Shown here in pieces: positions 80 to 23,771 of a DNA stretch of 32,694 nt. Position 1 is the first letter of the stretch, and each line of letters begins with the position of its first letter. The stretch is from an uncultured Eubacteriales bacterium (lineage in GTDB: Bacteria; Bacillota; Clostridia; Lachnospirales; Lachnospiraceae). The notes under the pieces are model-generated. The model worked only from the letters and a program-made list of their open reading frames with translations. It did not search any database and was not told the origin of the DNA. The stretch lies in assembly GCA_900318405.1 (NCBI GenBank), contig ONKP01000012.1, positions 1 to 32,694 of the forward strand, given 5' to 3'. A program made the position numbers and the translations under genes.

Positions 80-110
80 AACAAAACTCCTTTATTGTTT
101 CAATTGTTCA

Positions 111-192
111 TCACAGTACACTCGATGCCAGTCACTGTCGCACATGGATGGTTACTGTTCACTCTTTGCCAGCCACTGTCACACATGGCTCT
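111..192. repeat. Degenerate 41-bp tandem repeat, two copies
   Basis: TCACAGTACACTC at 111-123 matches TTACTGTTCACTC at 152-164, and GCCAGTCACTGTCGCACATGG-like 21-mers occur at 127-147 and 168-188; all are offset by exactly 41 bp. Read on the minus strand each copy starts a small ORF: MCDSGWQRV from 186 and MCDSDWHRV from 145. The second ends TAA at 92-94, directly against the ribosome binding site of the ORF starting at 79. It belongs with the other junction repeats in this window. Confidence 0.75.
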
Positions 193-229
193 GGCAGTGT
201 CTGAACTGCAGCCATGGATGATGGACCGG

Positions 230-258
230 TTGTCTTCTCCCTGTGTTTGGTATAGAAT
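230..258 (+). promoter_or_regulatory. Probable sigma-A promoter of the lipoprotein gene
   Basis: TTGTCT (230-235) and TAGAAT (253-258) are separated by 17 bp, giving a predicted start near 265 and an untranslated leader of about 100 nt before the ATG at 364. Confidence 0.5.
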
Positions 259-363
259 AAGCATAAATTGAAAAAGTCTGAATATTTAGCTTTTCAGGCT
301 TATCGTTCAGGCAACTGGCATCTGATAAATGATCACGTGTCCGTTCAACGCGGGGTGTTAAAT

Positions 364-1704
364 ATGAATTCTACGCAGAAAAGATTTGTTATAGCCGGGC
401 TTATCTGTGCGCTCGGATTCACGGGTTGCGGTTCCTCCAAATCAGCAACCGCCTCCACTTCAACCGTGGAAATGGCCACCGTCAACGCAGCCAAAAATCT
501 GATCGGCAGTGGTGTATCTTCATGCGATTCTACCCTTACTTCTGCCAGCTATGACCCTGCAGGAAAAGGATCCGTCACATCCGTAGACGGACAGCCTGTC
601 AATGCCGGCTTATCGGCTGGAACTTCAGCCTCAACTGACGCATCTGCATCAGGTACTTCTGCCACCAGCTCTTCCTCTGCCGACAGTTCAGGCGCAGACG
701 CAAATACTGCTGCGAACGGAACTGATGGCACAGCTGCATCAGCCAACGGAACAGATGCATCGGACGACGGCTCAGGTACAGATGTATCTGCAGTCGGCAC
801 AGATACCGGAGATGCTACGGGGACAGACGCTTCCGCGTCAGCTTCTTCGTCTTCATCATCTTCAGCCGGCAATGCATCTTCATCCATAGATTTTTCTGTT
901 ACAGCCGACTCTGAAAATCAGAAAGCAGCCCTCTGTCTGGCCAGCCTCGACCGGATCACCTGGACTTCCGGAATAACTTCCTTCGGTGGATATACGCCAT
1001 CTGCAGCGATGCTCCGCGTTCTGCAGGAAACAGGATCCACCATATCCGACGGCGGTAAACACTACGGATATATGCTCATCGACATCAATACGTATGCCGG
1101 CATCTGTTATGACAGCGATTCGCATTTCTACTCTTCCGGTGCTGCCGCGGCAGCATTCATCATCGGCACGCTGAATGCGGACGCCACGTCCCTTTCTAAC
1201 AGCGGAGAAGAATTTCAGATTGTCGCTGCCAACGGAAGCAGCTCACAGGAAACATACACAAATCTCATGAATACTTATGGATTCACCGGTATGAATCAGT
1301 GGCTGAACGCAGGCGGCATCGATCCGAGCATAGACGGCTACGGTGCAGCCTTTCTGAGCGCGGAAGACCTCAGCAGAATCTGGCTGAAAAACTACCAGTA
1401 TTTCACCACGGATTCCAATGGTTCGACGGTTGAGACCTGGTTCCAGAGCCCGTCAGATTCACCTATCCGCACAGCACTCGGCAGTAAATACACAACCTGG
1501 AGCCTGCCAGGCAACTACACCGGCGGCAGCGATGCCACAGATTATGATACGACGGTCGATGCCGGTATCGTTTCCTCCGGCAGTTCACCCTACGGCATCG
1601 CCATTATCTCCGATTACGCGGCACAGCCGGACAAACTGGTTCCGCTCGTGCAGGCGCTCGACGCCGTACATACAGAGCTCATGTCCGCCGCAGGATTATC
1701 CTGA
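364..1704 (+). CDS. Lipoprotein with a catalytically degenerate serine beta-lactamase-like domain
   Basis: 446 residues. The start at 364 is chosen because it directly precedes a lipoprotein signal (basic MNSTQKR, hydrophobic core, lipobox GFTGC with Cys22); an upstream TTG at 268 would put 32 unrelated residues before it. Residues about 60-180 are a low-complexity Ser/Ala/Thr/Asp/Gly linker. From about residue 190 the sequence resembles Lachnospiraceae class A beta-lactamase-like serine hydrolases, with landmarks GYMLIDINTYAGICYDSDSH, LSAEDLSRIWLKNYQYF and a C-terminal DAVHTELM. Where active relatives have Ser-x-x-Lys (about residues 254-265) this protein reads FYSSGAAAAAF, and the later K-P-G equivalent of KTG reads SLPG. 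Both lysines appear missing, so a binding or structural envelope role is more likely than hydrolysis. It ends convergently to purD. The fold assignment comes from remembered family patterns, not a search. Confidence 0.75.
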   Translation: MNSTQKRFVIAGLICALGFTGCGSSKSATASTSTVEMATVNAAKNLIGSGVSSCDSTLTSASYDPAGKGSVTSVDGQPVNAGLSAGTSASTDASASGTSATSSSSADSSGADANTAANGTDGTAASANGTDASDDGSGTDVSAVGTDTGDATGTDASASASSSSSSSAGNASSSIDFSVTADSENQKAALCLASLDRITWTSGITSFGGYTPSAAMLRVLQETGSTISDGGKHYGYMLIDINTYAGICYDSDSHFYSSGAAAAAFIIGTLNADATSLSNSGEEFQIVAANGSSSQETYTNLMNTYGFTGMNQWLNAGGIDPSIDGYGAAFLSAEDLSRIWLKNYQYFTTDSNGSTVETWFQSPSDSPIRTALGSKYTTWSLPGNYTGGSDATDYDTTVDAGIVSSGSSPYGIAIISDYAAQPDKLVPLVQALDAVHTELMSAAGLS

Positions 1705-1738
1705 GCGTACACATACATCTAACATCTACAGGGAGCAT

Positions 1739-1950
1739 ATACATCCAGTCTGCAAACCTTCGCAGACGCCGGTGCTTTGCAAGTCCGACAGAATGGAGGA
1801 CGAACTTGCGCGAGTAGTGAGCCACATCCACACACAAAGTGTGTGAGTGTGGCGAACACCGCGACAGTGTGAGAATCCAGTAAAACTGGATTCTCACACA
1901 TGGCACCGCTGCGTCGAGAAAGAGCGCAAGCGTTTTGCAGCTGGATGTAT
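1739..1950. repeat. Nested palindromic element between convergent genes
   Basis: Outer arms ATACATCCAGtCTGCAAA (1739-1756) and its complement at 1934-1950 pair over 17 bp with one bulged T. Inside are two hairpins of the same design, 15-nt arms and an AAA loop. One is at 1821-1853 (one mismatch, one G-T). The other is at 1867-1899 and is perfect, GTGTGAGAATCCAGT against its complement. No T-run follows either hairpin, so they are not standard intrinsic terminators, though they may stop transcription from both sides. The layout suggests a small mobile palindrome or a structured RNA; neither can be shown here. Confidence 0.7.
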
Positions 1951-1966
1951 GATGCTCCTGTATGAA

Positions 1967-3256
1967 TCAGCCTTTGAATTCATCGATGGCATGTCCGATA
2001 TCATGGCGATAATACTTGTTGTCGAAATCGACCCACTCCACCGCCTTATAAGCGTTCGCACGTGCCTCCTTCAGATCCTTCCCGAGGGCGGTCACATCCA
2101 GCACACGTCCGCCGTTTGTAACGATCTCACCCTTCTCATTGAACTTTGTTCCCGCATGGAAGCAGTAATATCCCGGGTGATTTTTGAAATTCTCCAGCCC
2201 GCGGATCGGGTATCCCTTCTTATAGGATACCGGATAGCCGTCGCTCGCGAGAACGACCGTGACGCAGGCATCATCCATGAACTGCAGATCGATCTGATCC
2301 AGTGTGCCGTCGATGCAGGCCTCAAAGACATCCACGATATCATTTTTCATTCGTGGCAGAACGACCTGTGCCTCAGGATCACCGAAGCGCGCATTGTACT
2401 CCAGAACCTTCGGTCCGTCCTCCGTCAGCATCAGACCGAAGAAGATCACGCCCTGGAAAGGACGTCCTTCTGCCTTCATGGCATCTACTGTCGGCTGGAA
2501 GATATACTTCTGGCAAAAATCATCGACCTCTTTTGTATAGAACGGCGTCGGCGAGAAATTGCCCATGCCGCCCGTGTTCAGGCCCTGATCTCCGTCTTTT
2601 GCCCGCTTATGGTCCTGCGCCGAAGCCATGGTCTTCACAATATTGCCGTCAACAAAGGAGAGAACGGACACCTCGCGGCCAGTCATAAACTCCTCGATCA
2701 CGAGCTGGTCGCCCGCAGATCCGAATTTCTTATCCACCATGAGTTCCTGTACACCGGCTTCTGCCTGCGCCAGATCCTCACAGATCAGAACGCCCTTGCC
2801 GAGTGCCAGTCCGGACGCCTTCAGAACGATCGGGAACTTTGCCTTCGTGCGAAGGTACTCGAGCGCGGAATCCGGGCTGTTGAAAACCTCGTAATCTGCC
2901 GTCGGGATGTTGTATTTCTTCATCAGATCCTTGGAAAATGCCTTGGAGCCCTCGAGGATCGCTGCATTTTTTCTCGGTCCGAAGACGCGGAGTCCCTCGG
3001 CCTCGAAAGCGTCCACAATACCGCCGACAAGAGGATCGTCCATACCGACAACTGTCAGATCAACGGCATTGTCCTTTGCAAACGCAACGAGTTTATCAAA
3101 CTCCATGGCGCCGATATTCACACATTCCGCCAGCTCGGCAATACCCGCATTGCCGGGTGCACAGTAGATCTTGTCTACCTTCGGACTCTGCGCTATCTTC
3201 CAAACGATGGCGTGCTCACGTCCGCCGCCGCCGACAACCAGAACTTTCATACCCAT
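1967..3256 (-). CDS. purD: Phosphoribosylamine-glycine ligase
   Basis: Joins 5-phosphoribosylamine and glycine with ATP to give GAR, the second step of de novo purine synthesis in the cytosol. 429 residues, the usual length. The N-terminus VLVVGGGGREHAIVWKIAQS is the family signature, followed by an ATP-grasp domain (FPIVLKASGLALGKGVLICE around residues 140-160) and NTGGMGNFSPTPF, with metal and ATP residues in LEYNARFGDPEAQVVLPRM near residue 290. ATG at 3256 follows AAGGAGGAG by a good distance; a second in-frame ATG at 3250 is possible. It is last in purE-purM-purN-purD, 15 nt after purN. purH, often found between purN and purD in Firmicutes, is absent here. Confidence 0.97.
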   Translation of the reverse strand: MGMKVLVVGGGGREHAIVWKIAQSPKVDKIYCAPGNAGIAELAECVNIGAMEFDKLVAFAKDNAVDLTVVGMDDPLVGGIVDAFEAEGLRVFGPRKNAAILEGSKAFSKDLMKKYNIPTADYEVFNSPDSALEYLRTKAKFPIVLKASGLALGKGVLICEDLAQAEAGVQELMVDKKFGSAGDQLVIEEFMTGREVSVLSFVDGNIVKTMASAQDHKRAKDGDQGLNTGGMGNFSPTPFYTKEVDDFCQKYIFQPTVDAMKAEGRPFQGVIFFGLMLTEDGPKVLEYNARFGDPEAQVVLPRMKNDIVDVFEACIDGTLDQIDLQFMDDACVTVVLASDGYPVSYKKGYPIRGLENFKNHPGYYCFHAGTKFNEKGEIVTNGGRVLDVTALGKDLKEARANAYKAVEWVDFDNKYYRHDIGHAIDEFKG

Positions 3257-3271
3257 GATGCTCCTCCTTTG

Positions 3272-3916
3272 TCAAATTTCTCCGAACGTGTAATTGCTGA
3301 TCTTCACTTTACCGTCTTCCACTGAAACGCGTCCGTTGGCGATCAGATTGATGGCCTCCGGCATGATTTTCCACTCCGCCTGTTCCATGACGCGGCGCTG
3401 CAGAATCTCCGGGGTGTCGCCCTCCTGCACATAGACCGCCTTCTGGAGGATGATCGGTCCCGTGTCGGTTCCGATGTCAACAAAATGAACGGTGGCACCG
3501 GTGACGCGGACACCTCTCTCCAGCACCTTCTCATGCACATGAAGCCCGTAGTATCCCTTGCCGCAGAAGCTCGGGATCAGTGCCGGGTGGATATTGATCA
3601 TTCTGTTCTTAAAAGCATTGACCATCTTCTCCGGAATGACGACCATGCAGCCTGCGAGCACGACCAGACCCGGAGTCCAGCTCTCTGTCTGTGCCAGATA
3701 GGCTTCTTCAAACGCAGCTCTGGTCGGATAATCCCTGGGGCTTACGCAGACAGCTTCGATTCCGTGCTTCCTGGCTCTCTCCAGCGCATAGGCATTCGGG
3801 TTATTGGAAAGCACGCCGACAACCTCTGCGTTCGTGATCTTTCCACTGTCGATGGCATCGAGGATCGCCTGCAGATTGGTTCCGCCTCCCGAGACAAGTA
3901 CCGCTATTCTCAGCAT
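3272..3916 (-). CDS. purN: Phosphoribosylglycinamide formyltransferase
   Basis: Transfers a formyl group from 10-formyl-THF to GAR, giving FGAR in purine synthesis. 214 residues, typical of PurN. Seen in the sequence: the N-terminal VLVSGGGTNLQAILDAI, the INIHPALIPSFCGKGYYGLHVH segment with the catalytic Asn-His pair, and VTGATVHFVDIGTDTGPII with the active-site Asp. The ATG at 3916 overlaps the last 7 nt of purM, implying translational coupling. No competing identity is plausible. Confidence 0.97.
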   Translation of the reverse strand: MLRIAVLVSGGGTNLQAILDAIDSGKITNAEVVGVLSNNPNAYALERARKHGIEAVCVSPRDYPTRAAFEEAYLAQTESWTPGLVVLAGCMVVIPEKMVNAFKNRMINIHPALIPSFCGKGYYGLHVHEKVLERGVRVTGATVHFVDIGTDTGPIILQKAVYVQEGDTPEILQRRVMEQAEWKIMPEAINLIANGRVSVEDGKVKISNYTFGEI

Positions 3917-4935: not shown

Positions 4936-4950
4936 AAATGACCTCTCTCT

Positions 4951-5019
4951 CCTGGTTGTTCCGTGCTGTCATGACACGGATTTTCCTGTTTGTTCCGTGT
5001 TGCTCGTCATGGCACGGAA
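4951..5019. repeat. Tandem repeat (period about 34 bp) upstream of purM
   Basis: CCTGGTTGTTCCGTG at 4951-4965 recurs as CCTGTTTGTTCCGTG at 4985-4999, and each is followed by a TCATG(A/G)CACGGA block, so each copy can also fold as a CCGTG/CACGG hairpin. On the minus strand the two copies give ATGACGAGCAAC and ATGACAGCACGG starts. The first encodes MTSNTEQTGKSVS and its stop (4969-4971) overlaps the second start as ATGA. The purM ribosome binding site comes from the last copy. The rest of the purE-purM spacer (5020-5170) holds a short CAGATG/CATCTG hairpin and nothing else I recognise. Confidence 0.7.
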
Positions 5020-5170
5020 GCGCGTCATTGTTTCCTCATTTGTAATGCGTTTCCAGATGTCCTATCCATCTGAAATGCCATTACTCATACGGCCGGTTCT
5101 GTCTGAGAATCGACATTTTTCACACAATTGCACACATCGGCTGTGCAGCTGTCAGTCCCCATCCCTCTGC

Positions 5171-5677: not shown

Positions 5678-5828
5678 AATCTGTCCTCCATATTGTAAAC
5701 ATGTATGCAGGTTATTCCCGCACCAAATATATTAACACCCATATACTACAAGACGCCACAGTACTGAATGAAGCCCGACTGTTTTATTTCTGCTCTTTAC
5801 ATCTGCCGAAGCGGAATCAGCTGCATGA

Positions 5829-7967
5829 TTACTGCGTCGCAGCATCCAGCGGTCTGTTCAGTTCTTCCGTTCCCGGCAGAACAAAACGTCCCTTTTCGAT
5901 GATCGGCACTGCCGTGCCATCCGGCCGGACCACCTCGATCAGTCCCAGCTCTTCATAGGGAATCGTGATGTCTGTGTGGCAGCCGAAGTAAGCCGCGGAG
6001 ATATCCTTTTTCCGCATGATGGAAACCTCATTATCCCTCGCAATGATCTCCTTGCCGTCCGGGTTGTAAACCTTCAGATCCTCCTGCCAACTGTAGCAGG
6101 TATCGCCAAAGGCGAAATGCGGCCCCATCTTCTCCGCGATGAGAATCGGCAGCTTTGACGCAATATTATACTTCTGCGCCATGCGGTAAGCTGTCGTATT
6201 CGTGCCGATCGCAAATTCCCCGACAGGAACCGTCGGATGGTGATACAGAATATTTTCCTGAATATAGCGCCGGTTTTCTTCCTCACTGTCAAAATTCGTG
6301 CAGCCGTATCCTGTCACGAGGCCGTCCTTCACCTCGATCCGGAGGTTTTCATAGTGCAGTTCCTCCAGGTATACACGGCTCACAAACAGTGTTCCCGTCG
6401 TTCCCTTCAGTCTGGGCGATGTGAAGACCTCACCCACGGGAATATTGACATCTGCCACGCAGTTCTCAAAATTGGTCTGTTTCGACGGATCCGTCAGCTC
6501 ATGAAGTGCGACCGTGATATCCGTCGTATTGCCGTTCATTCCCTTTACATGTACACTGGTTCCCGTGTCCAGCACATCGATGATCTTCTGCTGAATACGC
6601 TGATACGTCCGGTAATCGAGATTATTGATTTCCTCTGTCGCGTGAAAAATCTCTTCGAATTTTTCCCCGATCGCCGGCACCGGCCACGCAATGATCGTAA
6701 AGCTGCGGTCCTCACCCTTAATGAAACGGTTGGTGATCTGACCTGCTTCATTATTATAGCGCACCTGCTGCCGCTGCGCATCCGGTGTCATCTGTATGGC
6801 ATCAGGACACGCCGCCGGTGCAAATGCTTTTTCACCGAACACGTCCATAACAGCCGGACCGCCGTGCACGAAAGCGAGATTTCTGTAATGCTCATAGGCG
6901 CACTGCAGGGCCCGGAGCTTGTCAGAAACAAAGGCATCATCCAGAAATACCGCCGCGTCATTCCTGTGATCGTATTCAAACTGCGGATTCGGAATGGCGC
7001 CGTAATATCCGATCCGGAGATGCTGCCGGCGGTTGACCGCGTGTGTGGCTGAACGGTAGATCACACTCTCCAGTCCCATATCCGCAAACTGCAGGACAGC
7101 CTGCCGCACAACCTGCTCAAAACCCGTACGGTAACGGATATTCACCGTCCGCTTTTTGGACATATCCTTGTGTTCGGCCTCAAAGCCCAGGCGATAGCCG
7201 TTGGTGAATGTGCCGGCCATCCGCGCCACTTCTTCCTGTGGCAGTGATGAGAGGAAAGAGGAAAGCCGCTCTTCATCCGGCGTCACATATTCTCCGAAAA
7301 AATACAGGCTCCGAAGATCTGTCAGATCCCCGTTCATGATAAGATCCGCAGCAAAGGATACGCCGGGATCCAGCGCTTCTCTCGTCCGCTGATCCATGAA
7401 ATCCATGCAGTAATCGCGGCACCAGGAGCACAGGGTCTCACGCACCCGGCGCACCGCATCCGCTGATGACGGCTGTGTGCCCGACGCGGAAAAATCCTCG
7501 AACTGCCGGTAGATCTCCAGGAAAAGCTCCGTCGTAACGAGCATATCCCACCGCCGCGCCTCATACGCCCACACAACGGCTCCCCGGCATTCCATATAAA
7601 GGAAACTGATCAGCTGTCCCATGTCACGGCCGAATACAGAAGCTGCGAAGGTCGGATTGCCAAAACTTTTTCCGTAGTTTTCCGGAAGGATATCCTCATA
7701 ATCCGCATGATTTGCCACCCGCAGTTCATCGAGCGTCAGGTCGTAGAGAGATCCGTCCGACACCTGATCCATCCGCTCATACATGGAGGAAAGGAAGGCC
7801 GCTTCCCGCGTAAAAAAAGAACGATACGGTTCCTCTACGGACATCTCATCCGCAATTTCCGTAACCCGTTCACGGGCAAGCTGCCATCTCTCTTCTTCCC
7901 CGCCCGTCAGTACACAGGCGCGGTTCAGTTCTCTGGCCGCTGTGTTCCAGAATCCGGTATCGGTCAT
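5829..7967 (-). CDS. M29-family aminopeptidase with a long N-terminal extension
   Basis: 712 residues. The C-terminal half matches the M29 (thermophilic aminopeptidase, AmpS/PepS-like) metallopeptidases, two-metal cytosolic enzymes that remove N-terminal residues. Candidate metal ligands are Glu in VGEVFTSP, Glu in VGEFAIGTN, His in EKMGPHFAFGD, and His and Asp in CHTDITIP. Ordinary M29 enzymes are about 400 residues, so roughly the first 300 (to about DMSKKRTVNIRYRTG) form an extra domain; I believe longer forms occur in Clostridia but cannot confirm it. The ATG at 7967 is preceded by GGAAAGGAAG, and both lie in the last copy of a 47-bp repeat. It sits between pyr and pur genes with no obvious link to nucleotides. 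Confidence 0.8.
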   Translation of the reverse strand: MTDTGFWNTAARELNRACVLTGGEEERWQLARERVTEIADEMSVEEPYRSFFTREAAFLSSMYERMDQVSDGSLYDLTLDELRVANHADYEDILPENYGKSFGNPTFAASVFGRDMGQLISFLYMECRGAVVWAYEARRWDMLVTTELFLEIYRQFEDFSASGTQPSSADAVRRVRETLCSWCRDYCMDFMDQRTREALDPGVSFAADLIMNGDLTDLRSLYFFGEYVTPDEERLSSFLSSLPQEEVARMAGTFTNGYRLGFEAEHKDMSKKRTVNIRYRTGFEQVVRQAVLQFADMGLESVIYRSATHAVNRRQHLRIGYYGAIPNPQFEYDHRNDAAVFLDDAFVSDKLRALQCAYEHYRNLAFVHGGPAVMDVFGEKAFAPAACPDAIQMTPDAQRQQVRYNNEAGQITNRFIKGEDRSFTIIAWPVPAIGEKFEEIFHATEEINNLDYRTYQRIQQKIIDVLDTGTSVHVKGMNGNTTDITVALHELTDPSKQTNFENCVADVNIPVGEVFTSPRLKGTTGTLFVSRVYLEELHYENLRIEVKDGLVTGYGCTNFDSEEENRRYIQENILYHHPTVPVGEFAIGTNTTAYRMAQKYNIASKLPILIAEKMGPHFAFGDTCYSWQEDLKVYNPDGKEIIARDNEVSIMRKKDISAAYFGCHTDITIPYEELGLIEVVRPDGTAVPIIEKGRFVLPGTEELNRPLDAATQ

Positions 7968-8085
7968 TCTCTCAGACTTCCTTTCCGTACATAAATATCA
8001 AAGTTATCGATCACTTTCTCAGGCTTCCTTTCCGTACATGAAGATCAAAGTTATCGATTACTCTTTCAGGCTCCCTTTCTGCACA
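7968..8085. repeat. 47-bp tandem repeat joining the HD gene end to the aminopeptidase start
   Basis: TCTCAG-CTTCCTTTCCGTACAT-type units begin at 7970, 8017 and 8064, offset by exactly 47 bp. On the minus strand the first unit is the end of the HD gene (…VQKGSLKE, TAA). The second encodes VIDNFDLHVRKGSLRK followed by TGA. The third encodes VIDNFDIYVRKGSLRE from a GTG at 8014 and ends TGA at 7964-7966, overlapping the aminopeptidase ATG as ATGA. The shift between copies is not a multiple of three, so each copy sits in a new frame and stops at the next unit's start. Confidence 0.9.
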
Positions 8086-8648
8086 TTGGCATCCAGGATC
8101 GACTGCATATACTTCCAGATATCCTCGGAACCGGTGCCGGTCTTCGCATTTCTCTCTTCCACCTGGCTGCGCGCGATCCCGTGTTCTTTCCAGTCGCCGC
8201 CGCCATTGGAATTGTTCAGGAGCATCGGCTGAAAATTATCCATGGTATGTGCAAAACGCGCCTCCGGCGTCTCATAGGCGTTGAATTCCTCCCAGAGAGC
8301 CCGGAGGGCAGCGCCCTGATCCTCCGGCAGCAGACCGAAGATTCTGTCCGCCGCCGCATTTTCGCGGGTGCTCTCCGTCTTTTTGCCCTCTTTGTCATAG
8401 GCGTAGGTGTCCCCGGCATCGATCTCAACGATATCGTGGATCAGCACCATCAGCATCGTCCTGCCCACGTCGATCTTCGCATTTGCATATTCGCTGAGAA
8501 GCCACGTCATGACAGCCAGATGCCAGGCATGATCGGCATCGTCTTCACGCCGCCCGTGCCCCGTCAGATGCGTCTGTCTCAGTATCGTCTTTTCCTTATC
8601 GATTTCCAGAATAAAATCAAGCTGTTTCCGGAATCTTTCCTCGTCCAT
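8058..8648 (-). CDS. HD-domain hydrolase, YfbR/HDDC2-like 5'-nucleotidase
   Basis: 196 residues from ATG 8648, chosen because GAGG sits 6 nt upstream; a GTG at 8660 would add four residues. The HD superfamily pattern is clear: His in HAWHLAVMTWLL, His-Asp in VLIHDIVEIDAGDTYAY, and a later Asp in HTMDNFQPMLLNN. Order and spacing fit the HD_3 group containing YfbR and HDDC2, metal-dependent 5'-deoxynucleotidases acting on deoxynucleoside monophosphates. That role would fit a pyr-pur neighbourhood, but the exact substrate is inference. The last codons (VQKGSLKE) are copied twice into the downstream spacer, and the start region resembles the 37-bp repeats upstream of it. Confidence 0.8.
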   Translation of the reverse strand: MDEERFRKQLDFILEIDKEKTILRQTHLTGHGRREDDADHAWHLAVMTWLLSEYANAKIDVGRTMLMVLIHDIVEIDAGDTYAYDKEGKKTESTRENAAADRIFGLLPEDQGAALRALWEEFNAYETPEARFAHTMDNFQPMLLNNSNGGGDWKEHGIARSQVEERNAKTGTGSEDIWKYMQSILDANVQKGSLKE

Positions 8649-8668
8649 CCTGCGCCTCACTCTCTGTC

Positions 8669-8817
8669 ACTGAACTGTATTTCCTCTGCCTCTGTCATGA
8701 AACAGAGTCAGCCATCCACTCTTCTGCGCCTGCATGAAATACAATCAGTCATGCACTCCTCCGCGCCTGCATGAAATACCGTCAGCCATGCACTCCTCTG
8801 CGCCTCACGAAATACCG
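8669..8817. repeat. 37-bp tandem repeat, three good copies plus a degenerate one
   Basis: Units at 8708-8744, 8745-8781 and 8782-8817 share TCAG(C/T)CATGCACTCCTC-GCGCCTGCATGAAATACCG; a decayed unit lies at 8669-8707 and a stub (TCAGTC) at 8818. On the minus strand each has a GGAGGAG-like ribosome binding site, ATG and a tiny ORF: MADGISCRRGGVHD (8745-8789), MTDCISCRRRRVDG (8708-8752) and MADSVS (8695-8715). Consecutive ORFs overlap, and the HD gene's own GTGAGGCGCAGGATGG start resembles the same unit. Confidence 0.9.
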
Positions 8818-8823
8818 TCAGTC

Positions 8824-9147: not shown

Positions 9148-9189
9148 AGGTACATTCTGTTCCCGTTGTATCCTTTCAGCAATATCTTC

Positions 9190-10852: not shown

Positions 10853-10918
10853 CTGCCGCCTGCCGGTTCAGCCCGGACTGATCTGCCCTGCCGTCTGTCT
10901 GCCAGTTCAGCCGAGATC
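10853..10918. repeat. Duplicated pyrK-end segment in the pyrK-pyrD spacer
   Basis: TGCCAGTTCAGC at 10900-10911, which contains the pyrK stop codon, recurs as TGCCGGTTCAGC at 10861-10872, offset 39 bp, with flanking similarity (CTGCCG… before, …GATC after). It is a decayed single duplication of the end of pyrK. Confidence 0.55.
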
Positions 10919-11746
10919 AAGTTGCTCCGCGCGGAAGACAGGTCCGTCCGTGCACACCCTGGCATTTCTGACATGCGAATGGCCGTCCACTTCCGTTGTT
11001 TTGCACACGCAGGCCAGGCAGGCACCGATGCCGCAGGCCATCCTCTCTTCCATCGAGATCCAGCAGGGGATCTGCTTTTCCACAGCGAATGCTTTCAGTG
11101 CACGCAGCATGGGAAGCGGTCCGCAGGCAAAAATAATCTCCGGCACGCATCCGTTTTCCCGCAGAGCATCCAGCACATTTCCCTTTGTGCCCGTACTGCC
11201 GTCCTCCGTGGCGATCATTACATCCCCATAGGAGGCAAACTCCGGCACAAGAAAGGTTTTACTTCGATAACCGAGAACACCGGTCACATGCGTCGGCTGC
11301 ATACGGAGCTCTCCGTCACTGTCTTTTCCGGTTACGCCCTCGCTCTCATGGAGAACACGGGCCGTTTCCAGCAGAGGCGGAATGCCGATGCCGCCGCCAA
11401 TCAGTGTCACACGACGGCCGGCAGCCTCTTCCAGAGGAAAACCGTTGCCGAGGGGTCCCATCATACGCAGCGTTGCTCCTGCTTTCATGGCAGCCAGCTC
11501 CTGCGTGCCTCCGCCTGATACGCGGTAGACGAGACGGAGAATCCCCTTCTCCGCGTCAATCCCACACAGACTGATCGGACGCGGCAGAATCCTCGCCGCA
11601 TCGGGGAGGTAGAGATTAACGAACTGCCCCGGAACCGCAAGAGCTGCTGCCTCCGGCGCCTCCAGTCTCATATCCCATATGCCGTCAAGGATCTCTGTCT
11701 GTGAAAGAATCCGGGCCGTTTCCATATGTTTCATCGTTTTTTCCAT
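10907..11746 (-). CDS. pyrK: Dihydroorotate dehydrogenase electron-transfer subunit
   Basis: FAD and [2Fe-2S] subunit that passes electrons from PyrD to NAD+. 279 residues. N-terminal flavin domain with PGQFVNLYLPDAARILPRPI, NAD-binding IGGGIGIPPLLETARVL and FACGPLPMLRAL, and a C-terminal cluster-binding stretch with Cys238, Cys243, Cys246 and Cys265 (ERMACGIGACLACVCK … ARVC). ATG 11746 follows GGAAGGGGACAGAATC; a second ATG (Met5, 11734) overlaps the stop of a small upstream ORF as ATGA and is an alternative start. The spacer before it carries degenerate repeats. Confidence 0.95.
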   Translation of the reverse strand: MEKTMKHMETARILSQTEILDGIWDMRLEAPEAAALAVPGQFVNLYLPDAARILPRPISLCGIDAEKGILRLVYRVSGGGTQELAAMKAGATLRMMGPLGNGFPLEEAAGRRVTLIGGGIGIPPLLETARVLHESEGVTGKDSDGELRMQPTHVTGVLGYRSKTFLVPEFASYGDVMIATEDGSTGTKGNVLDALRENGCVPEIIFACGPLPMLRALKAFAVEKQIPCWISMEERMACGIGACLACVCKTTEVDGHSHVRNARVCTDGPVFRAEQLDLG

Positions 11747-11755
11747 GATTCTGTC

Positions 11756-11840
11756 CCCTTCCAGCCGGAATATCCTGGTTTCCGTCTGAAATTTTCCTCA
11801 TTTCTCCCAACCGGAAATTTCCTCATCCCTTCCAGCCAGA
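11756..11840. repeat. Degenerate repeats upstream of pyrK
   Basis: CCCTTCCAGCC occurs at 11756-11766 and 11827-11837, a relative TTCTCCCAACC at 11802-11812, and TTTCCTCA at 11793-11800 and 11818-11825 (offset 25). On the minus strand each unit reads stop-like TGAGG, GGAAATTT, then a purine-rich GGAAGGG or GGGAG and ATGAG. The pyrK ribosome binding site is the last copy. The remainder of the pyrF-pyrK spacer (11841-11919) holds two small hairpins and nothing else I recognise. Confidence 0.6.
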
Positions 11841-11919
11841 ATTCCCAGCGCTCACAGGCCGCAGCAGTGTCAGCACTGCGGGTAAATGCCCTGCTTTACC
11901 TCCGAAAATTTCCGTGCGC

Positions 11920-12852
11920 TCACGCACCGGCGATGGCGCCGTTGATATCCGCGATCATATCGAGTACCGCCTGACGGGAAGCGTCTGCATAGGCAGCCTC
12001 GCCGAACTCCGCATATTTTTCCTTGCGGTACGCACAGATGATGCCGCGCGAGCTGTTGACGATCGCACCGAGACCGTCCTCATTGAAAAATCCGCGGAGA
12101 TCCGAGCCTTTTCCGCCCTGTGCACCGTAGCCCGGCACAAGGATATAACTCTGCGGCATGATTTTTCTCAGCGCCGTGCCCTGCTCAGGATAGGTTGCGC
12201 CGACAACGGCACCCACATCATAGTATCCGTACTCGCCGGGTTCACCCTCACGTGCCCACGCATTTACTTTTTCAGCGACCAGCTCGTAGAGCGGACGCCC
12301 GTCGATCAGACGGTCCTGAAATTCCCCGCTCGACGGGTTGGATGTCTTCACAAGAACGAAAATACCCTTCTGTTCCTTCCTGCAGACATTGATGAACGGA
12401 CGGACACCGTCGCTTCCGAGATACGGATTGACGGTCGCAAAATCCTCATGAAAGGCGGTAAACGCATGCGTACCGACCCGTGTATGGCCCAGATGCGCCT
12501 GCGCATAGGCATCCGATGTGGAACCGATGTCACCCCGCTTGATGTCACCGATCACGCAGAGTCCCTTGCTCTGGCAGTAGGTAACGGTACGCTCAAAACA
12601 GGTCATGCCGGGAATGCCGTACTGTTCATACATGGCAATCTGCGGCTTCACCGCCGGGATCAGATCATAGGTGGCGTCGATGATGCCCTTGTTGAATTCC
12701 CAGATGGCCTCAGCAGCACCTTCCAGTGTCTCGCCGAATTCAATGAAAGCGGTGTTCAGAATTTTCTCCGGCACATAGTCGAGCATCGGATCAAGTCCGA
12801 CAACAACAGGTGCGTTCTTCTCTCTGATATTCCGGATCAGATCATCAATCAT
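11920..12852 (-). CDS. pyrF: Orotidine 5'-phosphate decarboxylase, long form
   Basis: Decarboxylates OMP to UMP. 310 residues, matching the longer (subfamily 2) OMP decarboxylases rather than the 230-240-residue form. The catalytic Asp-Lys-Asp signature is in VIGDIKRGDIGSTSDAYAQA, with VVVGLDPMLDYVPEK at the N-terminus and SYILVPGYGAQGG late. ATG 12852 overlaps the pyrC end by 8 nt and has GGGAG 8 nt upstream, so it is preferred over more upstream starts inside pyrC. Confidence 0.95.
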   Translation of the reverse strand: MIDDLIRNIREKNAPVVVGLDPMLDYVPEKILNTAFIEFGETLEGAAEAIWEFNKGIIDATYDLIPAVKPQIAMYEQYGIPGMTCFERTVTYCQSKGLCVIGDIKRGDIGSTSDAYAQAHLGHTRVGTHAFTAFHEDFATVNPYLGSDGVRPFINVCRKEQKGIFVLVKTSNPSSGEFQDRLIDGRPLYELVAEKVNAWAREGEPGEYGYYDVGAVVGATYPEQGTALRKIMPQSYILVPGYGAQGGKGSDLRGFFNEDGLGAIVNSSRGIICAYRKEKYAEFGEAAYADASRQAVLDMIADINGAIAGA

Positions 12853-14857: not shown

Positions 14858-14874
14858 ACTGTACTGTATAAGCT

Positions 14875-14940
14875 CTTCGAATCGCATACAGTCTCTTACA
14901 CACGCGAAGCGTGTGTAAGAGACTGTATGTGGTTTCGAAG
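14875..14940. repeat. Long hairpin: 21-bp perfect stem plus 7-bp outer stem
   Basis: CTTCGAA (14875-14881) pairs with TTCGAAG (14934-14940). After a 3/4-nt internal loop, 14885-14905 (CATACAGTCTC…ACACACGC) pairs perfectly with 14909-14929 around a GAA loop. The three-base loop and CACAC/GTGTG arms recall the two hairpins at 1821-1899. No T-run follows. ATACAGT at 14886-14892 can alternatively pair with ACTGTAT at 14863-14869. Confidence 0.85.
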
Positions 14941-14958
14941 GCAACAGGTATGAGGATG

Positions 14959-15324: not shown

Positions 15325-15394
15325 GATGAAATATTCCTCTCTGATTTCTTATTTCTCCCGCATCCGCTGATCAGTCAGCATGCCGGACTGAACC

Positions 15395-15423: not shown

Positions 15424-15463
15424 GAGCGGCAATTTTTATGATGCGTGTCGCCCGCACAGAGCA

Positions 15464-15469
15464 TATAAT
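15464..15469 (+). promoter_or_regulatory. Possible -10 box for the DUF5721-like gene
   Basis: A perfect TATAAT lies about 94 nt before the ATG at 15563. No recognisable -35 hexamer is found 16-18 bp upstream, so support is weak. Confidence 0.3.
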
Positions 15470-15562
15470 ATAGGCATGGCTTTCTGTCATACGCGGGAAA
15501 CATATGCGGAGCGCCTGCTGCAAGGAGTTGAAACGGGAAGTTTCGTAAGGAGTACAGGATTT

Positions 15563-16060: not shown

Positions 16061-16171
16061 ACCCGCATGTCAGAAATGATGCCACCGTGCTGTATTCAGC
16101 CCGGCTGTGATACCGTACGGGGATGCTGTGCAGATCATATTCTGTCTGATGCAGGAGAAAAATATGTCAGC

Positions 16172-19005: not shown

Positions 19006-19163
19006 GAAAAATCACACTCCTCGCCTGACGTATTCCGCTGTTTAATTACAAGTCCGGAATACAGATGCCTCCGGACATTTTGCCAACTTGCATATCCAAC
19101 CACGTTTCCCGAAATCCTCGAGCCTTCACTCCTGGATTTCAGCCGTGTATGTCAACACAAAGT

Positions 19164-19192
19164 ATATTAGAGCGCGAATGACCAAAAGTCAA
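19164..19192 (-). promoter_or_regulatory. Sigma-A promoter of htpG-aroK
   Basis: Minus strand TTGACT (19187-19192), 17 bp, TAATAT (19164-19169). The leader of about 150 nt contains a GTCCGGA/TCCGGAC hairpin, roughly 65-90 nt before htpG. Confidence 0.85.
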
Positions 19193-19193
19193 G

Positions 19194-19228
19194 AAAAAAT
19201 CAGCACTCGTTTCATTCGAGTGCTGATT
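19194..19228 (-). terminator. glnS terminator that is also a CIRCE-like operator
   Basis: AATCAGCACTCG (19198-19209) and CGAGTGCTGATT (19217-19228) form a 12-bp stem with a 7-nt loop; on the minus strand it is followed by a T-run (19194-19199), so it is a good intrinsic terminator 26 nt after glnS. The same bases read TCAGCACTC-N9-GAGTGCTGA, 16 of 18 matches to the HrcA-binding CIRCE consensus TTAGCACTC-N9-GAGTGCTAA. It ends 5 bp upstream of the htpG -35 box. Confidence 0.8.
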
Positions 19229-19254
19229 AAAGATGATGACAATATAAATATTCC

Positions 19255-20970
19255 TCAGTGCGCTGCCGGAAGTTTGAAGGAACTCTTCAGCGATACAATT
19301 CTTCCGAACACCGGCTGACCGGGCTGGCTGAGCTTCGGATCTGCGGAGAAAAATCCATTGCGCACGAACTGGAAGCGGTCATACGCCTTCGCCTCTGCGA
19401 GTGCCGGCTCCACATATGCCTGGCAGATCTCCATGGAATCCGGATTGATATTCATGGATCCGTCTTCCTCGTTGTAGACGCCCTTCTCTTCATCGATCAG
19501 ATTATTATAGAGGCGAACCTCTACCTGCTTTGCATCTGCAGCATTGACCCAGTGGATCGTTCCCTTTACTTTTCTTCCATCCGGGCTGTTGCCCCCGCGG
19601 GAAGCCGGATCATAGGTCACATGGATCAGCGTCACACGGCCATCCGCATCCTTTTCGCAGGATACACACTTCACAAAGTAAGCCTGCATCAGGCGGACCT
19701 CATTGCCGGGGAACATACGGAAATATTTTTTCGGCGGGACTTCCATAAAGTCGCTGCGCTCAATATAGAGCTCGCGCGAGAATGTCACTTTTCTGGTGCC
19801 CAGCGCCTCGTTTTCCGGATTGTTCGGAACCTCGAATTCCTCTGTCTTGCCCTCCGGGTAATTATCGATTACGACCTTCACCGGATCAAGAACCGCATAC
19901 ATGCGCGGCGCTTTGGCCTTCAGGTCATCACGGATACAGTACTCGAGCATGGCGTAATCGGTCGAGCTGTTTGCTTTTGCGATACCGCCGAGTTCGACAA
20001 ATTTCTGGATCGATTCCGGCGTGTAGCCGCGGCGGCGGAGCGCAGCGATCGTGACGAGACGGGGATCATCCCATCCGTCAACGGTTCCGTTCTCCACCAG
20101 CTTCTTAATATAACGCTTTCCGGTGACCACATTAGTCAGGTAGAGCTTGGCAAACTCGATCTGGCGTGGCGGATTTTCAAACATGCCGACATTCTGCACA
20201 ACCCAGTTGTACAGCGGACGATGATCCTCGAACTCCAGCGTGCAGAGAGAATGCGTAACACCCTCGAAGGCGTCCTCCAGCGGATGCGCGAAATCGTACA
20301 TCGGATAGATGCACCACTTATCTCCCGTGTTCTGGTGGGTCAGATGCGCGATACGGTAAAGAATCGGGTCGCGCATGTTGATGTTGGCGGCCTTCATGTC
20401 TATTTTTGCACGGAGAACCTTTTCACCGTCGGCGAATTCGCCGTTCTTCATTCTCGTAAAGAGATCCAGATTTTCTTCCACGCTGCGGTTGCGATTCGGA
20501 TCATCCTTCCCGACATCGTTCCAGCCGCCTCGGTACTCACGGATCTCTTCAGCGGACAGATCCGATACATAGGCCTTGCCGGCTTTGATCAGATTGAGCG
20601 CAGCTTCATACATGCGGTCAAAATAATTGGAGGCAAAATACGGCCCGTTAAACTTCACGCCGAGCCACTCCACATCTTTTTTGATCGCCTCTACATACTC
20701 GCCCTTCTCCTTCGTCGGATTCGTATCGTCGAAGCGGAGATTGAACTGGCCGCCGTATTCCTTCGCGATATGGTAGTTGAGAAGAATCGACTTGGCGTGA
20801 CCGATATGCAGGAAACCGTTCGGTTCCGGCGGGAAACGTGTCACCACATGCGTGTACTTTCCCTCTGCCAGATCTTTGTCGATCTCCATCTCGATGAAAT
20901 TGCGGGAAGTCTTCTCGGCACCTTCTTCAGTGCCGGAACTTTCATTCCCCGTGATCTTTTCGTTATCCAC
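19255..20970 (-). CDS. glnS: Glutaminyl-tRNA synthetase
   Basis: Charges tRNA-Gln with glutamine. 571 residues from GTG 20970, chosen because AAGGAGG lies exactly 8 nt upstream; the frame is open to 21030. Class I landmarks: [15 protein letters not shown] (HIGH), [19 protein letters not shown], and [16 protein letters not shown] at the KMSKS position, followed by [20 protein letters not shown]. The C-terminal half is the anticodon-binding beta-barrel region. Its presence implies direct Gln-tRNA charging, so GatCAB may be dispensable for glutamine. It lies downstream of tRNA-Val with a terminator between them. Confidence 0.96.
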
Positions 20971-20987
20971 CCTCTTATCCTCCTTCA

Positions 20988-21020
20988 TGTACTGTATTAA
21001 GCCGTCGACACGCATACAGT
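20988..21020 (-). promoter_or_regulatory. Inverted repeat just upstream of the glnS ribosome binding site
   Basis: ACTGTAT (20991-20997) and ATACAGT (21014-21020) can pair with a 16-nt loop a few bases before AAGGAGG, so the stem could affect glnS translation. The 33-nt segment closely matches 14860-14892: both begin TGTACTGTAT and end CGCATACAGT at the same spacing. Confidence 0.4.
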
Positions 21021-21075
21021 TTTGAGGCATGCGAAATATGAATGTTTACAGCATTAAGACAAGACTGCCTATATA

Positions 21076-21111
21076 ACAAGACTGCCGCACTTAAATCAAG
21101 TGTGGCAGTCT
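21076..21111 (-). terminator. Terminator of tRNA-Val
   Basis: Minus strand AGACTGCC-A-CACTT, loop, AAGTG-C-GGCAGTCT, then TTGTT. One A/C mismatch interrupts a 13-bp stem (21079-21111). The 3' arm with its tail, ACAAGACTGCC on the plus strand, is repeated at 21059-21069 and 21076-21086, a 17-bp-period duplication. Confidence 0.7.
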
Positions 21112-21119
21112 GTCATGCG

Positions 21120-21193
21120 TGGAACCGACGGGGATCGAACCCGTGACCTCTCGCGTGTGAGGCGAACGCTCATCCCGGCTGAGCTACGGTTCC
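21120..21193 (-). tRNA. tRNA-Val (anticodon CAC)
   Basis: The minus strand folds as a full cloverleaf: acceptor GGAACCG/CGGTTCC, D stem GCTC/GAGC, anticodon stem TTCGC/GCGAG with loop CTCACAC giving anticodon CAC (codon GUG), variable AGGTC, T stem ACGGG/CCCGT with loop TTCGATC. The discriminator is A and CCA is not encoded. Confidence 0.96.
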
Positions 21194-21204
21194 ATACGTG
21201 CTTT

Positions 21205-21233
21205 AGTTTAGCACCGCATCATTCTTCGGTCAA
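21205..21233 (-). promoter_or_regulatory. Promoter of tRNA-Val
   Basis: Minus strand TTGACC (21228-21233), 17 bp, TAAACT (21205-21210), 11 nt before the mature 5' end. Confidence 0.8.
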
Positions 21234-21279
21234 TGTAAAATTGCATGTTCTGAAAATGATAGAGTTACAGTTCAAACAC

Positions 21280-21308
21280 TACCAGGGCCACGGAACACGT
21301 GGCTGGTA
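21280..21308 (-). terminator. Terminator-like hairpin after glf
   Basis: TACCAGgGCCACG (21280-21292) pairs with CGTGGCTGGTA (21298-21308) around GAACA, with one bulged G. On the minus strand it follows glf by about 35 nt but only a weak T-stretch comes after it. Confidence 0.5.
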
Positions 21309-21344
21309 ACGAGTGACCTGCAGCATGACAGAAATATCTGTATA

Positions 21345-22463
21345 CTATCTGAGCAGCTCATCCGCTTTTGCCAGCGCTGACGCGATCACAGCATCCATAT
21401 CGTAATAACAGTACTCACCGAGCCGCCCGCCGAATACCACGTGCTGCTCCCTGTCTGCCATTTCCCTGTACTGTGCATACAGCTTCCCGTTTTTCTCATC
21501 GTTGACAGGGTAATACGGCTCGGAGCCCGGCTTCCACTCGGAAGAGTACTCGCGGCTGATGACAGTCTTCGGCAGATCATTTCCGTTTTCATCTTTGCCG
21601 AACTCAAACCACTTGTGCTCGATAATCCTCGTCCACGGCGTTTCACGGTCCGTGTAATTCACCGCGGCATTGCCCTGGAAATTCGGCTTGTCCAGAACCT
21701 CTGTTTCAAAGCGCACCGAACGGTATTCCAGCGCCCCGAGTGAAAAATCAAAATAGGCGTCGATTGCCCCTGTGTAGATCACCTTGTCAGCCATGCTGTC
21801 CCAGGAGGCTCTGTCCTTCAGGTAATCCTCTCCCAGCCGCACCTCAACGCCATCGAGCATATTGGCAACCATTTTTGTATAGCCGCCCACGGGAATTCCC
21901 TGATACAGGGCATTAAAATAATTGTTGTCAAATGTCAGTCTCACAGGAAGGCGTCTGATGATAAACGCCGGCAGTTCACGGCACGGCCGACCCCATTGCT
22001 TTTCCGTATATCCCTTGATCAGCTTCTCATAGATATCCGTGCCGACCAGCGAGATCGCCTGCTCTTCCAGATTCTGAGGATTTGTGATACCGGCTTCTCT
22101 GCGCTGCGCCTCTATTTTTGCCGCTGCCTCTTCCGGCGTGGCAACGCCCCACATTTTGTTGAACGTATACATATTGAAAGGCAGAGAATACAGCTCTCCC
22201 CTGTAATTTGCCACCGGTGAATTGGTAAAGCGGTTGAACACGGCGAACTGGTTGACATAGTTCCACACCTCTGTATTATTCGTGTGAAAAATATGCGCAC
22301 CGTATCTGTGAACGTTGATGCCCTCGATCCTCTCCGTGTATACATTGCCGGCAATGTGCGGGCGCCTGTCAATGACGAGCACATGTTTACCCGCTTTTTT
22401 TGCCTCGTGTGCAAACACAGCGCCATACAATCCCGCGCCGACAATGAGATAATCATATTTCAT
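21345..22463 (-). CDS. glf: UDP-galactopyranose mutase
   Basis: Flavoenzyme converting UDP-galactopyranose to UDP-galactofuranose for cell-surface glycans. 372 residues from ATG 22463, with AGAGGG upstream; the frame is open to a GTG at 22553 but the flavin motif starts at MKYDYLIVGAGLYG. Visible: FAD-binding GAGLYGAVFAHEAKKAG and VIDRRPHIAGNVY, HRYGAHIFHTN, SPVANYRGELYSLPFNMYTF, YTEKQWGRPCRELP, YYPVNDEKN and FGGRLGEYCYYDMD. It lies 120 nt after hypE; glycosyltransferase partners are not nearby. The spacer holds a CCGGCAA/TTGCCGG hairpin. Confidence 0.95.
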   Translation of the reverse strand: MKYDYLIVGAGLYGAVFAHEAKKAGKHVLVIDRRPHIAGNVYTERIEGINVHRYGAHIFHTNNTEVWNYVNQFAVFNRFTNSPVANYRGELYSLPFNMYTFNKMWGVATPEEAAAKIEAQRREAGITNPQNLEEQAISLVGTDIYEKLIKGYTEKQWGRPCRELPAFIIRRLPVRLTFDNNYFNALYQGIPVGGYTKMVANMLDGVEVRLGEDYLKDRASWDSMADKVIYTGAIDAYFDFSLGALEYRSVRFETEVLDKPNFQGNAAVNYTDRETPWTRIIEHKWFEFGKDENGNDLPKTVISREYSSEWKPGSEPYYPVNDEKNGKLYAQYREMADREQHVVFGGRLGEYCYYDMDAVIASALAKADELLR

Positions 22464-22583
22464 GGCTTTCCCTCTGTAATTGTCCGTTCTGCCGGCAATG
22501 TTGCCGGTCATTGACATGATCGCTGTTTTCCAGTTATTATCAGGATTTCCCACGCAGGGGATCTTTGCCGGTTCCTTAACTCC

Positions 22584-23609
22584 TCAGCAGATTCTCGGCA
22601 GACCTTCGCCCTGCAGCACATCCATCCGGCGCATGCCGCCCACCGGCGTCCGCATCAGCAGGTCACCCGGTCGGCCGCCCTCTGATTTTTCTGCCGTTGT
22701 CACACGTCCTATGATGGCAGCATCTGCTCCGTAGCGGGAAGCGCGGATCACAGCAAGCGCTTTTTCCGCATCGGCACCGTCCACAATGGCCGTCAGCTTG
22801 CCCTCATTTCCCATGTACATCGGATCGAGTCCCAGCAGACCGCAGAAATCCCGGACCCTGGGGGAAACGGGAACCGCATCGCTCTCAAGCGTAAATACAA
22901 GTCCGCACGCTTCGGCGAGCTCCTTCAGAACAGTACCCAGACCGCCTCTCGTGATGTCCCGCAGGACATGTACCTTCACGCCGGCAGCAATCAGCGCCTG
23001 AACCATCTCGCCAAGCGGCGCGTTATCACTCTGAATATCCGTATCGATCTGCATGCGCTCGCTCAGGATCGCCGCATGATGGTCACCCATATTACCTGAG
23101 ACGAGAATGGCATCGCCGTCCCGGGCACCGGATGCTCCGATTTCCAGCCCTTCCGGCACAAAGCCGACGCCGGCTGTATTGATCATCATGCCGCCTCTGC
23201 TCTTTTCGGCGTCGATCACCTTGGTATCACCGGCCACGATCTGTACCCCCGCCTCGCGCGCTGTCTCCGCCATAGCATGCACCACACGTCGCAGCAGCTC
23301 CGTTGAAAGTCCCTCCTGCAGAATGAAACCCGCCGTGAGATACTTCGGCGTCGCGCCGCGCATCAGGAGATCATTGACCGTCCCGCATACGCTCAGCCGG
23401 CCGATGTTTCCGCCCCTGTACTCCAGCGGCGTCACGACAAAGCTGTCCGTTGTCAGTGCTATGCGGCTGCTGCCCGGCACAACAGCACTGTCCTCCATCT
23501 GATTGAGGATCTCGTTATCAAACTCTTCTGCAAAAATACCGGCGATCAGTTCCCCAGTGGCCTGTCCGCCGCTCCCATGCGCCATCGTTATCGTTTCTGT
23601 CATCGTCAT
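22584..23609 (-). CDS. hypE: Hydrogenase maturation protein HypE
   Basis: Dehydrates the carbamoyl group received from HypF on its C-terminal cysteine to a thiocyanate, the source of the CN ligands of the [NiFe] site. 341 residues, PurM-like fold. Seen: MAHGSGGQATGELIAGIF, LTTDSFVVTPLEYRGGNIG, VCGTVNDLLMRGATPKYLT, VAGDTKVID, DITRGGLGTVLKELAEA and the essential C-terminal PRIC with its terminal Cys. ATG 23609 lacks a strong ribosome binding site and overlaps as ATGA the stop of a 26-codon ORF in the upstream repeat region. Confidence 0.96.
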   Translation of the reverse strand: MTMTETITMAHGSGGQATGELIAGIFAEEFDNEILNQMEDSAVVPGSSRIALTTDSFVVTPLEYRGGNIGRLSVCGTVNDLLMRGATPKYLTAGFILQEGLSTELLRRVVHAMAETAREAGVQIVAGDTKVIDAEKSRGGMMINTAGVGFVPEGLEIGASGARDGDAILVSGNMGDHHAAILSERMQIDTDIQSDNAPLGEMVQALIAAGVKVHVLRDITRGGLGTVLKELAEACGLVFTLESDAVPVSPRVRDFCGLLGLDPMYMGNEGKLTAIVDGADAEKALAVIRASRYGADAAIIGRVTTAEKSEGGRPGDLLMRTPVGGMRRMDVLQGEGLPRIC

Positions 23610-23672
23610 TTATTTCTGCCGTCCCGCGGCGACAGCCTCCCGGAGATCTTCTCTCCGTACGTTCTCAGCATT

Positions 23673-23771
23673 CTGTCTGTTCTCATGTGCGGCTCTCTCA
23701 GCCAGCACTTCCTGTCTGTTCTCCTGTCGGCTCTCTCTGCCGGCACTTCCTGTCTGTTCTCCTGCAGGTTA
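23673..23771. repeat. 38/39-bp tandem repeat between hypD and hypE
   Basis: CTGTCTGTTCTC starts units at 23673, 23712 and 23750, each followed by a GGCTCTCTC-like block that in the last unit is the hypD end (GGTTACTCTCTCCG, containing the stop at 23769-23771). On the minus strand the third-generation copy opens an ORF at 23686 (MRTDRMLRTYGEK…) that ends TGA at 23606-23608, overlapping the hypE start. Confidence 0.85.

What the first reader, a model, noticed from the sequence alone, without database searches (positions are those of the whole stretch)
92..23771. Window-wide pattern: operon spacers filled by gene-junction tandem repeats
Seven junction spacers, with unrelated sequences, carry short tandem units (periods about 25-47 bp) made from the neighbouring gene end and/or start, often with stop-start overlaps. 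Tight junctions (purM-purN, pyrC-pyrF, hypC-hypD, htpG-aroK, ech genes) lack them, as do a few longer spacers (5678-5828, 22464-22583, 25028-25137). A shared mechanism, such as slippage at junctions with selection for extra initiation sites, would be a new genome-scale feature. A neutral replication-slippage explanation is equally open.
Basis: partly seen in the sequence, partly recalled or inferred. Interest (0 to 1): 0.8.

Follow-up and report, generated by a model that had tools for sequence, protein, structure and literature searches.

The report
Scattered tandem duplications tolerated in spacers
The short repeats between these genes are real, but they look like ordinary small DNA duplications that occur across this bacterium's genome and survive where they do no harm, rather than a special device at gene junctions.

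Summary
The repeats are real. Of 17 window spacers tested, 6 exceed all 200 shuffles; 3 are strong arrays: 7958-8086 (47 bp), 8682-8821 (37 bp), 23666-23764 (38 bp). One of the six, 113-188, is a dispersed element with at least 41 matches in this genome.

In a 1.21-Mb sample (56%) of the genome, arrays are far above chance (30 of 342 co-directional spacers against 0.45 in shuffles) but not specific to operon junctions: 5.7 per 10 kb co-directional, 5.3 divergent, 4.2 convergent (P=0.63). They avoid start codons (3 of 61, expected 11.6). The raw excess over stop codons (22 of 61, expected 11.5) shrinks to 20 of 57 (expected 16.1, P=0.12) once the last 20 nt before the start are excluded, and is absent in a fresh sample. 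Units carry no excess of ribosome-binding site plus start codon over their own shuffles (9 of 61 against 8.1). In coding sequence 91 of 96 periods are multiples of 3, in spacers 33 of 82.

Best reading: recurrent short tandem duplication filtered by purifying selection, at a raised level in this genome.

The parts
7958..8086 (-). 47-bp x 2.7 array spanning the stop of the 8058-8660 gene and the start of the 5829-7967 gene; each unit repeats the upstream gene's tail with an AAGGAAG-type SD
   Evidence: shuffles 0 of 200
8682..8821 (-). 37-bp x 3.8 array between the 8824-9147 gene and the 8058-8660 gene, beginning 2 nt after the upstream stop
   Evidence: shuffles 0 of 200
23666..23764 (-). 38-bp x 2.6 array in the hypD-hypE spacer, beginning 4 nt after the hypD stop
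   Evidence: shuffles 0 of 200
4950..5002 (-). weak 34-bp-spaced direct repeat in the purE-purM spacer
   Evidence: shuffles 0 of 200; genes named; not listed by TRF at score 30
11756..11842 (-). weak direct repeats (25- and 71-bp spacing) in the spacer between pyrF (11920-12852) and a dihydroorotate dehydrogenase electron-transfer-like gene (10907-11746; below that family's cut-off)
   Evidence: shuffles 0 of 200
113..188 (.). two partial copies, 41 bp apart, of a dispersed element; not a gene-junction duplication
5829..7967 (-). 712-aa gene downstream of array 7958-8086; no NCBIfam match
8058..8660 (-). 200-aa gene whose 3' end is duplicated in array 7958-8086; no NCBIfam match

Best explanation
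The arrays are unrelated, recurrent short tandem duplications (spacer periods: median 29.5 bp) that arise throughout the genome and persist where selection tolerates them. A founding duplication copies a stretch once; later slippage between the copies and point mutation give the imperfect arrays of a few copies. In coding sequence almost only frame-preserving periods survive; in spacers most duplications that would reach a start codon are removed; a unit that covers a stop codon is harmless because the first copy keeps the gene's end intact, so gene ends and spacers collect them. The level is raised in this genome and looks similarly high in one congener (G014). Shown: excess over chance, similar density in the spacer types, frame filter, start avoidance, lack of shared sequence, differences between species. 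Inferred: neutrality, and slippage as the step that adds copies.
For: Excess over shuffles in co-directional (30 of 342 against 0.45), divergent (10 of 51 against 0) and convergent spacers (2 of 55 against 0). Density per 10 kb 5.71, 5.31 and 4.15, coding 0.93; co-directional against other spacers P=0.63. Coding periods multiple of 3 in 91 of 96, spacer periods in 33 of 82 (Fisher P=3e-16). Start overlap 3 of 61, expected 11.6. Only 1 pair among 82 spacer arrays shares sequence. Junctions differ between species: no array at the 7958-8086 junction in 9 of 9 relative loci read; an unrelated 37-bp array at the 8682-8821 junction in G014; none between hypE and its upstream neighbour in 7 of 7 congener loci.
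Against: Sample 1 alone keeps a borderline stop excess after the start zone is excluded (16 of 41, expected 11.8, P=0.065), and start avoidance is not significant in sample 2 alone (2 of 19, expected 3.8, P=0.19). Units are purine-rich on the coding strand (58.6% against 54.2%, P=0.001) and fold slightly better than other spacer pieces (P=0.005), so placement or formation is not fully random. Nine of 13 clean exact duplications have 0-1 nt flanking homology, which classical slippage between existing repeats does not explain for the founding step. No strain comparison was possible.
Confidence: 0.75

Rival explanations
1. Functional junction device: selection keeps repeated SD/start sites to support re-initiation or coupling into the downstream gene.
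For: Array 7958-8086 repeats an SD and a start/stop region (by reading). Crude counts: 14 of 61 unit pairs carry SD plus start on the coding strand against 2 of 61 on the other; 8.4 per kb in arrays against 3.5 per kb in the rest of the same spacers. SD cores: 23 of 61 units against 15.2 in random spacer pieces, 1 of 300 draws reaching it.
Against: Against shuffles of the same units the excess is gone: SD plus start 9 against 8.1 (122 of 300 shuffles reach it), SD cores 23 against 20.4 (67 of 300). Start overlap is depleted. Divergent spacers are as rich. Orthologous junctions lack the arrays.
Confidence: 0.05
2. Mutational hot spot at gene ends: duplication is more frequent around stop codons, for example where translation and transcription uncouple.
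For: 22 of 61 co-directional arrays cover the upstream stop and 29 of 61 begin no later than 10 nt after it, against 11.5 and 15.3 expected.
Against: With the start zone excluded the excess is 20 of 57 against 16.1 (P=0.12); sample 2 alone 5 of 19 against 3.8. Divergent spacers, which have no stop codons at their edges, have the same density.
Confidence: 0.12
3. The arrays are copies of a dispersed mobile repeat family (MIRU- or REP-like) inserted at gene ends.
For: True of one window spacer: 113-188 belongs to an element with at least 41 matches in the genome.
Against: Among 82 spacer arrays only 1 pair shares sequence. Against the 1.21-Mb sample, 4936-5170, 7958-8098, 11747-11919 and 23610-23771 gave no match listed apart from themselves, and 8682-8821 only its own copies.
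Confidence: 0.03
4. Assembly artefact of a draft genome.
For: 91 contigs, 91.66% complete; exact two-copy duplications exist (22 of period 15 or more).
Against: Most arrays are imperfect (median 87.5% match), coding periods respect frame, and other genomes also hold arrays.
Confidence: 0.03

Closest known systems
Tandem repeats of Borg elements (PMC9879509; passages, section 9)
   Same: Arrays in ORFs have unit lengths divisible by three while only 14-38% of intergenic ones do; [quoted passage not shown] they arise independently and evolve fast; units are A-enriched.
   Different: Borg units are perfect copies on archaeal extrachromosomal elements; here most are imperfect (median match 87.5%) and lie on a bacterial genome, with only a mild purine bias.
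Unique satellites / minisatellites (VNTR-type) of bacteria, e.g. Clostridioides difficile (PMC6749651, passages)
   Same: Head-to-tail arrays that are unrelated to each other; coding ones with periods in multiples of 3.
   Different: That survey uses other thresholds, so densities cannot be compared; copy-number polymorphism between strains is untested here.
Mycobacterial interspersed repetitive units, MIRU (passages in PMC12548453, and PMC2734929)
   Same: Units of 40-100 bp; found between co-directional genes; array 7958-8086 has a stop/start arrangement that resembles theirs.
   Different: MIRUs are one family that inserts at start codons with a -4 nt overlap; these arrays share no sequence and avoid start codons.

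Membership tests
Minisatellite / VNTR-type tandem array | head-to-tail units of roughly 10-100 bp | tested here: met
   median period 29.5 bp in spacers, longest 125 bp
Minisatellite / VNTR-type tandem array | copy number varies between strains | not testable with these tools
   one genome per species held; between species junctions differ
MIRU | one sequence family dispersed over many loci | tested here: not met
   1 pair among 82 spacer arrays shares sequence
MIRU | insertion at the start codon of the downstream gene | tested here: not met
   3 of 61 co-directional arrays reach the start, 11.6 expected
Borg-type tandem repeats | unit length divisible by three in ORFs, not in spacers | tested here: met
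   91 of 96 against 33 of 82
Borg-type tandem repeats | perfectly repeated units | tested here: not met
   median match 87.5% over 82 spacer arrays
REP/BIME-type repeats (features recalled) | dispersed palindromic units | tested here: not met
   arrays are not dispersed copies and units are only slightly more structured than other spacer pieces; the separate element at 14860-14950 does look like this

The most novel reading that the evidence does not exclude
This lineage has a raised rate of largely homology-independent short tandem duplication (about 15-75 bp, in purine-rich and somewhat hairpin-prone sequence, without Ku), so that spacers and frame-neutral coding sites are continually lengthened: a bacterial counterpart of the Borg repeat process.
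Probability: 0.25. Interest if true: 0.5.

Novelty: new member of a known kind. Interest (0 to 1): 0.27.

Why it matters
A striking local pattern (repeats that look built from gene ends and starts) can come from unbiased duplication plus selection against damage. The start-exclusion placement test gives a usable null for anyone who reads function into repeats that span stop or start codons. The raised density here and in G014, and the scant flanking homology of the youngest duplications, make the group a possible system for asking how short tandem duplications begin.

Tried and rejected
Extra initiation sites: a crude sense/antisense count looked strong but vanished against shuffles of single units. 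Attraction to stop codons: 22 of 61 looked significant against plain uniform placement, but is largely explained by start avoidance and was not seen in the second sample. Former coding repeats that lost their frame: rejected because spacer periods are not mostly multiples of 3 (33 of 82). Dispersed family: rejected for the class; true of 113-188. Ku-dependent joining: no Ku match in 0 of 16 genus genomes searched, control positive in Bacillus subtilis. Loss of MutS-type proteins: 2 matches in this genome; mutL, recJ and sbcCD were not searched. Helical phasing of periods: weak (R 0.12).

Papers: five searches. Seen: PMC9879509 (passages and section 9), PMC6749651, PMC2884548, PMC2734929 and PMC12548453 (passages only). 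None of the titles listed describes such arrays in this genus, but no search named the genus, which I could not identify; only named the family Lachnospiraceae, which I infer from the titles of relatives.

Limits: genes were called by a hexamer caller written here, not a published tool; short genes and starts may be off. Arrays are TRF score 50 or more, period 15 or more; 10 of shorter period in sample 1 were dropped; 3 of 181 at contig or stretch ends were set aside. Retraining the caller moves one array between classes (81 spacer and 97 coding; 82 and 96). Comparator samples are small (10-30 kb noncoding each), and the E. coli one counts an rRNA operon as noncoding, which lowers its density.

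Full report
What is in the window. Tandem Repeats Finder gives three strong arrays: 7958-8086 (47 bp x 2.7), 8682-8821 (37 bp x 3.8) and 23666-23764 (38 bp x 2.6), all between minus-strand genes. A self-match scan of 17 window spacers against 200 dinucleotide shuffles each finds 6 that no shuffle reaches: those three plus 113-188 (41 bp), 4950-5002 (34 bp) and 11756-11842 (71 and 25 bp). A seventh, 21059-21086, is reached by 1 of 200.

What the units are. Array 7958-8086 is a real junction duplication: its units repeat the tail of the upstream gene (ending KGSLKE in the gene itself), an AAGGAAG-type SD and the stop or start region (the unit reading is mine). 8682-8821 and 23666-23764 begin 2 and 4 nt after the upstream stop and do not reach the called start. 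113-188 is different: two partial copies of a dispersed element with at least 41 matches in this genome, 35 in congener G012 and none in the 14 other congeners. An SD and ATG on the minus strand at 79 suggest that its spacer is divergent (my reading).

Genome-wide test. In sample 1, 42 arrays lie in 71.0 kb of co-directional spacer, 11 in 15.8 kb divergent, 4 in 12.2 kb convergent, 62 in 679 kb coding, and 2 at stretch ends. Spacers of 40 nt or more with an array: 30 of 342 co-directional (shuffle mean 0.45), 10 of 51 divergent (0), 2 of 55 convergent (0); length-matched coding pieces, mean 4.2 of 342. Both samples: co-directional 61 arrays (5.71 per 10 kb), divergent 14 (5.31), convergent 7 (4.15), coding 96 (0.93). 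Co-directional against the other spacers: P=0.63. Operon-type spacers are not special. In sample 2 alone the values are 5.31, 2.84 and 6.46, from 19, 3 and 3 arrays.

Stops and starts. In sample 1, 17 of 42 co-directional arrays cover the upstream stop and 1 of 42 the downstream start. Against uniform placement of the ancestral unit, both samples give 22 of 61 over stops (expected 11.5, P=0.0003) and 3 of 61 over starts (expected 11.6, P=0.0005). With units that reach the last 20, 35 or 50 nt before the start excluded, stops are 20 of 57 (expected 16.1, P=0.12), 18 of 50 (14.7, P=0.13) and 14 of 43 (11.6, P=0.21). Sample 1 alone keeps a borderline excess (16 of 41, expected 11.8, P=0.065). Sample 2 alone has stops 5 of 19 (expected 3.8) and starts 2 of 19 (expected 3.8, P=0.19). 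Most of the stop effect is the mirror image of start avoidance. Coding arrays are not depleted near gene starts (10 of 96 within 60 nt of the start, 12 of 96 within 60 nt of the stop, about 6.8 expected at either end), so the avoidance concerns spacer arrays that reach the initiation region.

Frame filter. Coding periods are multiples of 3 in 91 of 96, spacer periods in 33 of 82 (Fisher P=3e-16). Duplication everywhere followed by purifying selection predicts this.

Initiation sites. A crude count put SD-plus-start sites at 8.4 per kb on the coding strand of arrays, 0.6 on the other strand and 3.5 per kb in the rest of the same spacers. With one unit per array, 9 of 61 carry SD plus start, against 8.1 (sd 2.5) for shuffles of the same units and 5.9 (sd 2.3) for random spacer pieces; SD cores alone 23 of 61 against 20.4 and 15.2. 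The units are purine-rich (58.6% against 54.2%), which accounts for the SD-like words. Selection for extra initiation sites is not supported.

Relatives. The junction of 7958-8086 has no array in the spacer of 9 of 9 relative loci read; the junction of 8682-8821 has an unrelated 37-bp array in G014. Between purE and purM, 2 of the 14 congener loci that show both genes have arrays (226 and 18 bp), and 0 of 29 family loci have one just upstream of purM. Between hypE and its upstream neighbour, 0 of 7 congener loci have one. Density of noncoding arrays per 10 kb: 5.39 here, G014 4.48, G020 2.99, G003 2.73, 24 pooled relative loci 1.02, G028 0.96, G001 0.89, G050 0.80, E. coli K-12 0.78. The difference is clear against E. 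coli and the pooled loci (P=0.0005 each), nominal against G050 and G001 (P=0.02 and 0.05), and not significant against G014, G003, G020 and G028.

How duplications may start. Of 22 exact two-copy duplications of period 15 or more, 13 have no decayed extra copy. Nine of these have 0-1 nt of flanking homology, the others 2, 3, 3 and 13 nt. The mean of 1.85 exceeds random (0.74, P=0.002), driven in part by the one with 13 nt. No Ku match was found in any of 16 genus genomes; MutS-type proteins are present. Units fold slightly better than other spacer pieces (P=0.005). Template switching or fill-in is possible; the numbers are too small to decide.

Known kinds. The pattern matches what was described for Borg elements (unit lengths divisible by 3 in ORFs but not in spacers, independent origin, arrays that start within an ORF end; PMC9879509) and the mutually unrelated satellites of C. 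difficile (PMC6749651). MIRUs differ: one family, inserted at start codons (PMC12548453; PMC2734929). I file the arrays as ordinary minisatellite-type arrays at a raised density.

Noticed in passing
window 113-220: Copy of a dispersed element (core about window 151-188): at least 41 matches in this genome, 35 in congener G012, none in the 14 other congeners (only part of the candidates was scored, so counts are lower bounds).
   Followed up: partly
window 14860-14950: Near-perfect 90-nt hairpin element (MFE -56 kcal/mol, z -12): 30 matches here, 22 in G012, 76 in G004, 73 in G014, 49 in G010, 12 in G005, none in 10 other congeners (both strands of a palindrome can count). Possibly REP- or MITE-like.
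   Followed up: partly
window 20996-21035: A further dispersed motif beginning GTCGACACGCATACAGTTTT, 9 places in the 1.21-Mb sample with up to 4 mismatches.
   Followed up: no
window 21059-21086: Marginal 17-bp-spaced direct repeat beside the tRNA-Val gene (1 of 200 shuffles reached it; tRNA).
   Followed up: no
L084, L106: Relatives of the 8058-8660 protein (67% and 55% identity) lie in records titled Solobacterium and Bacteroidales: naming or binning error, or transfer.
   Followed up: no
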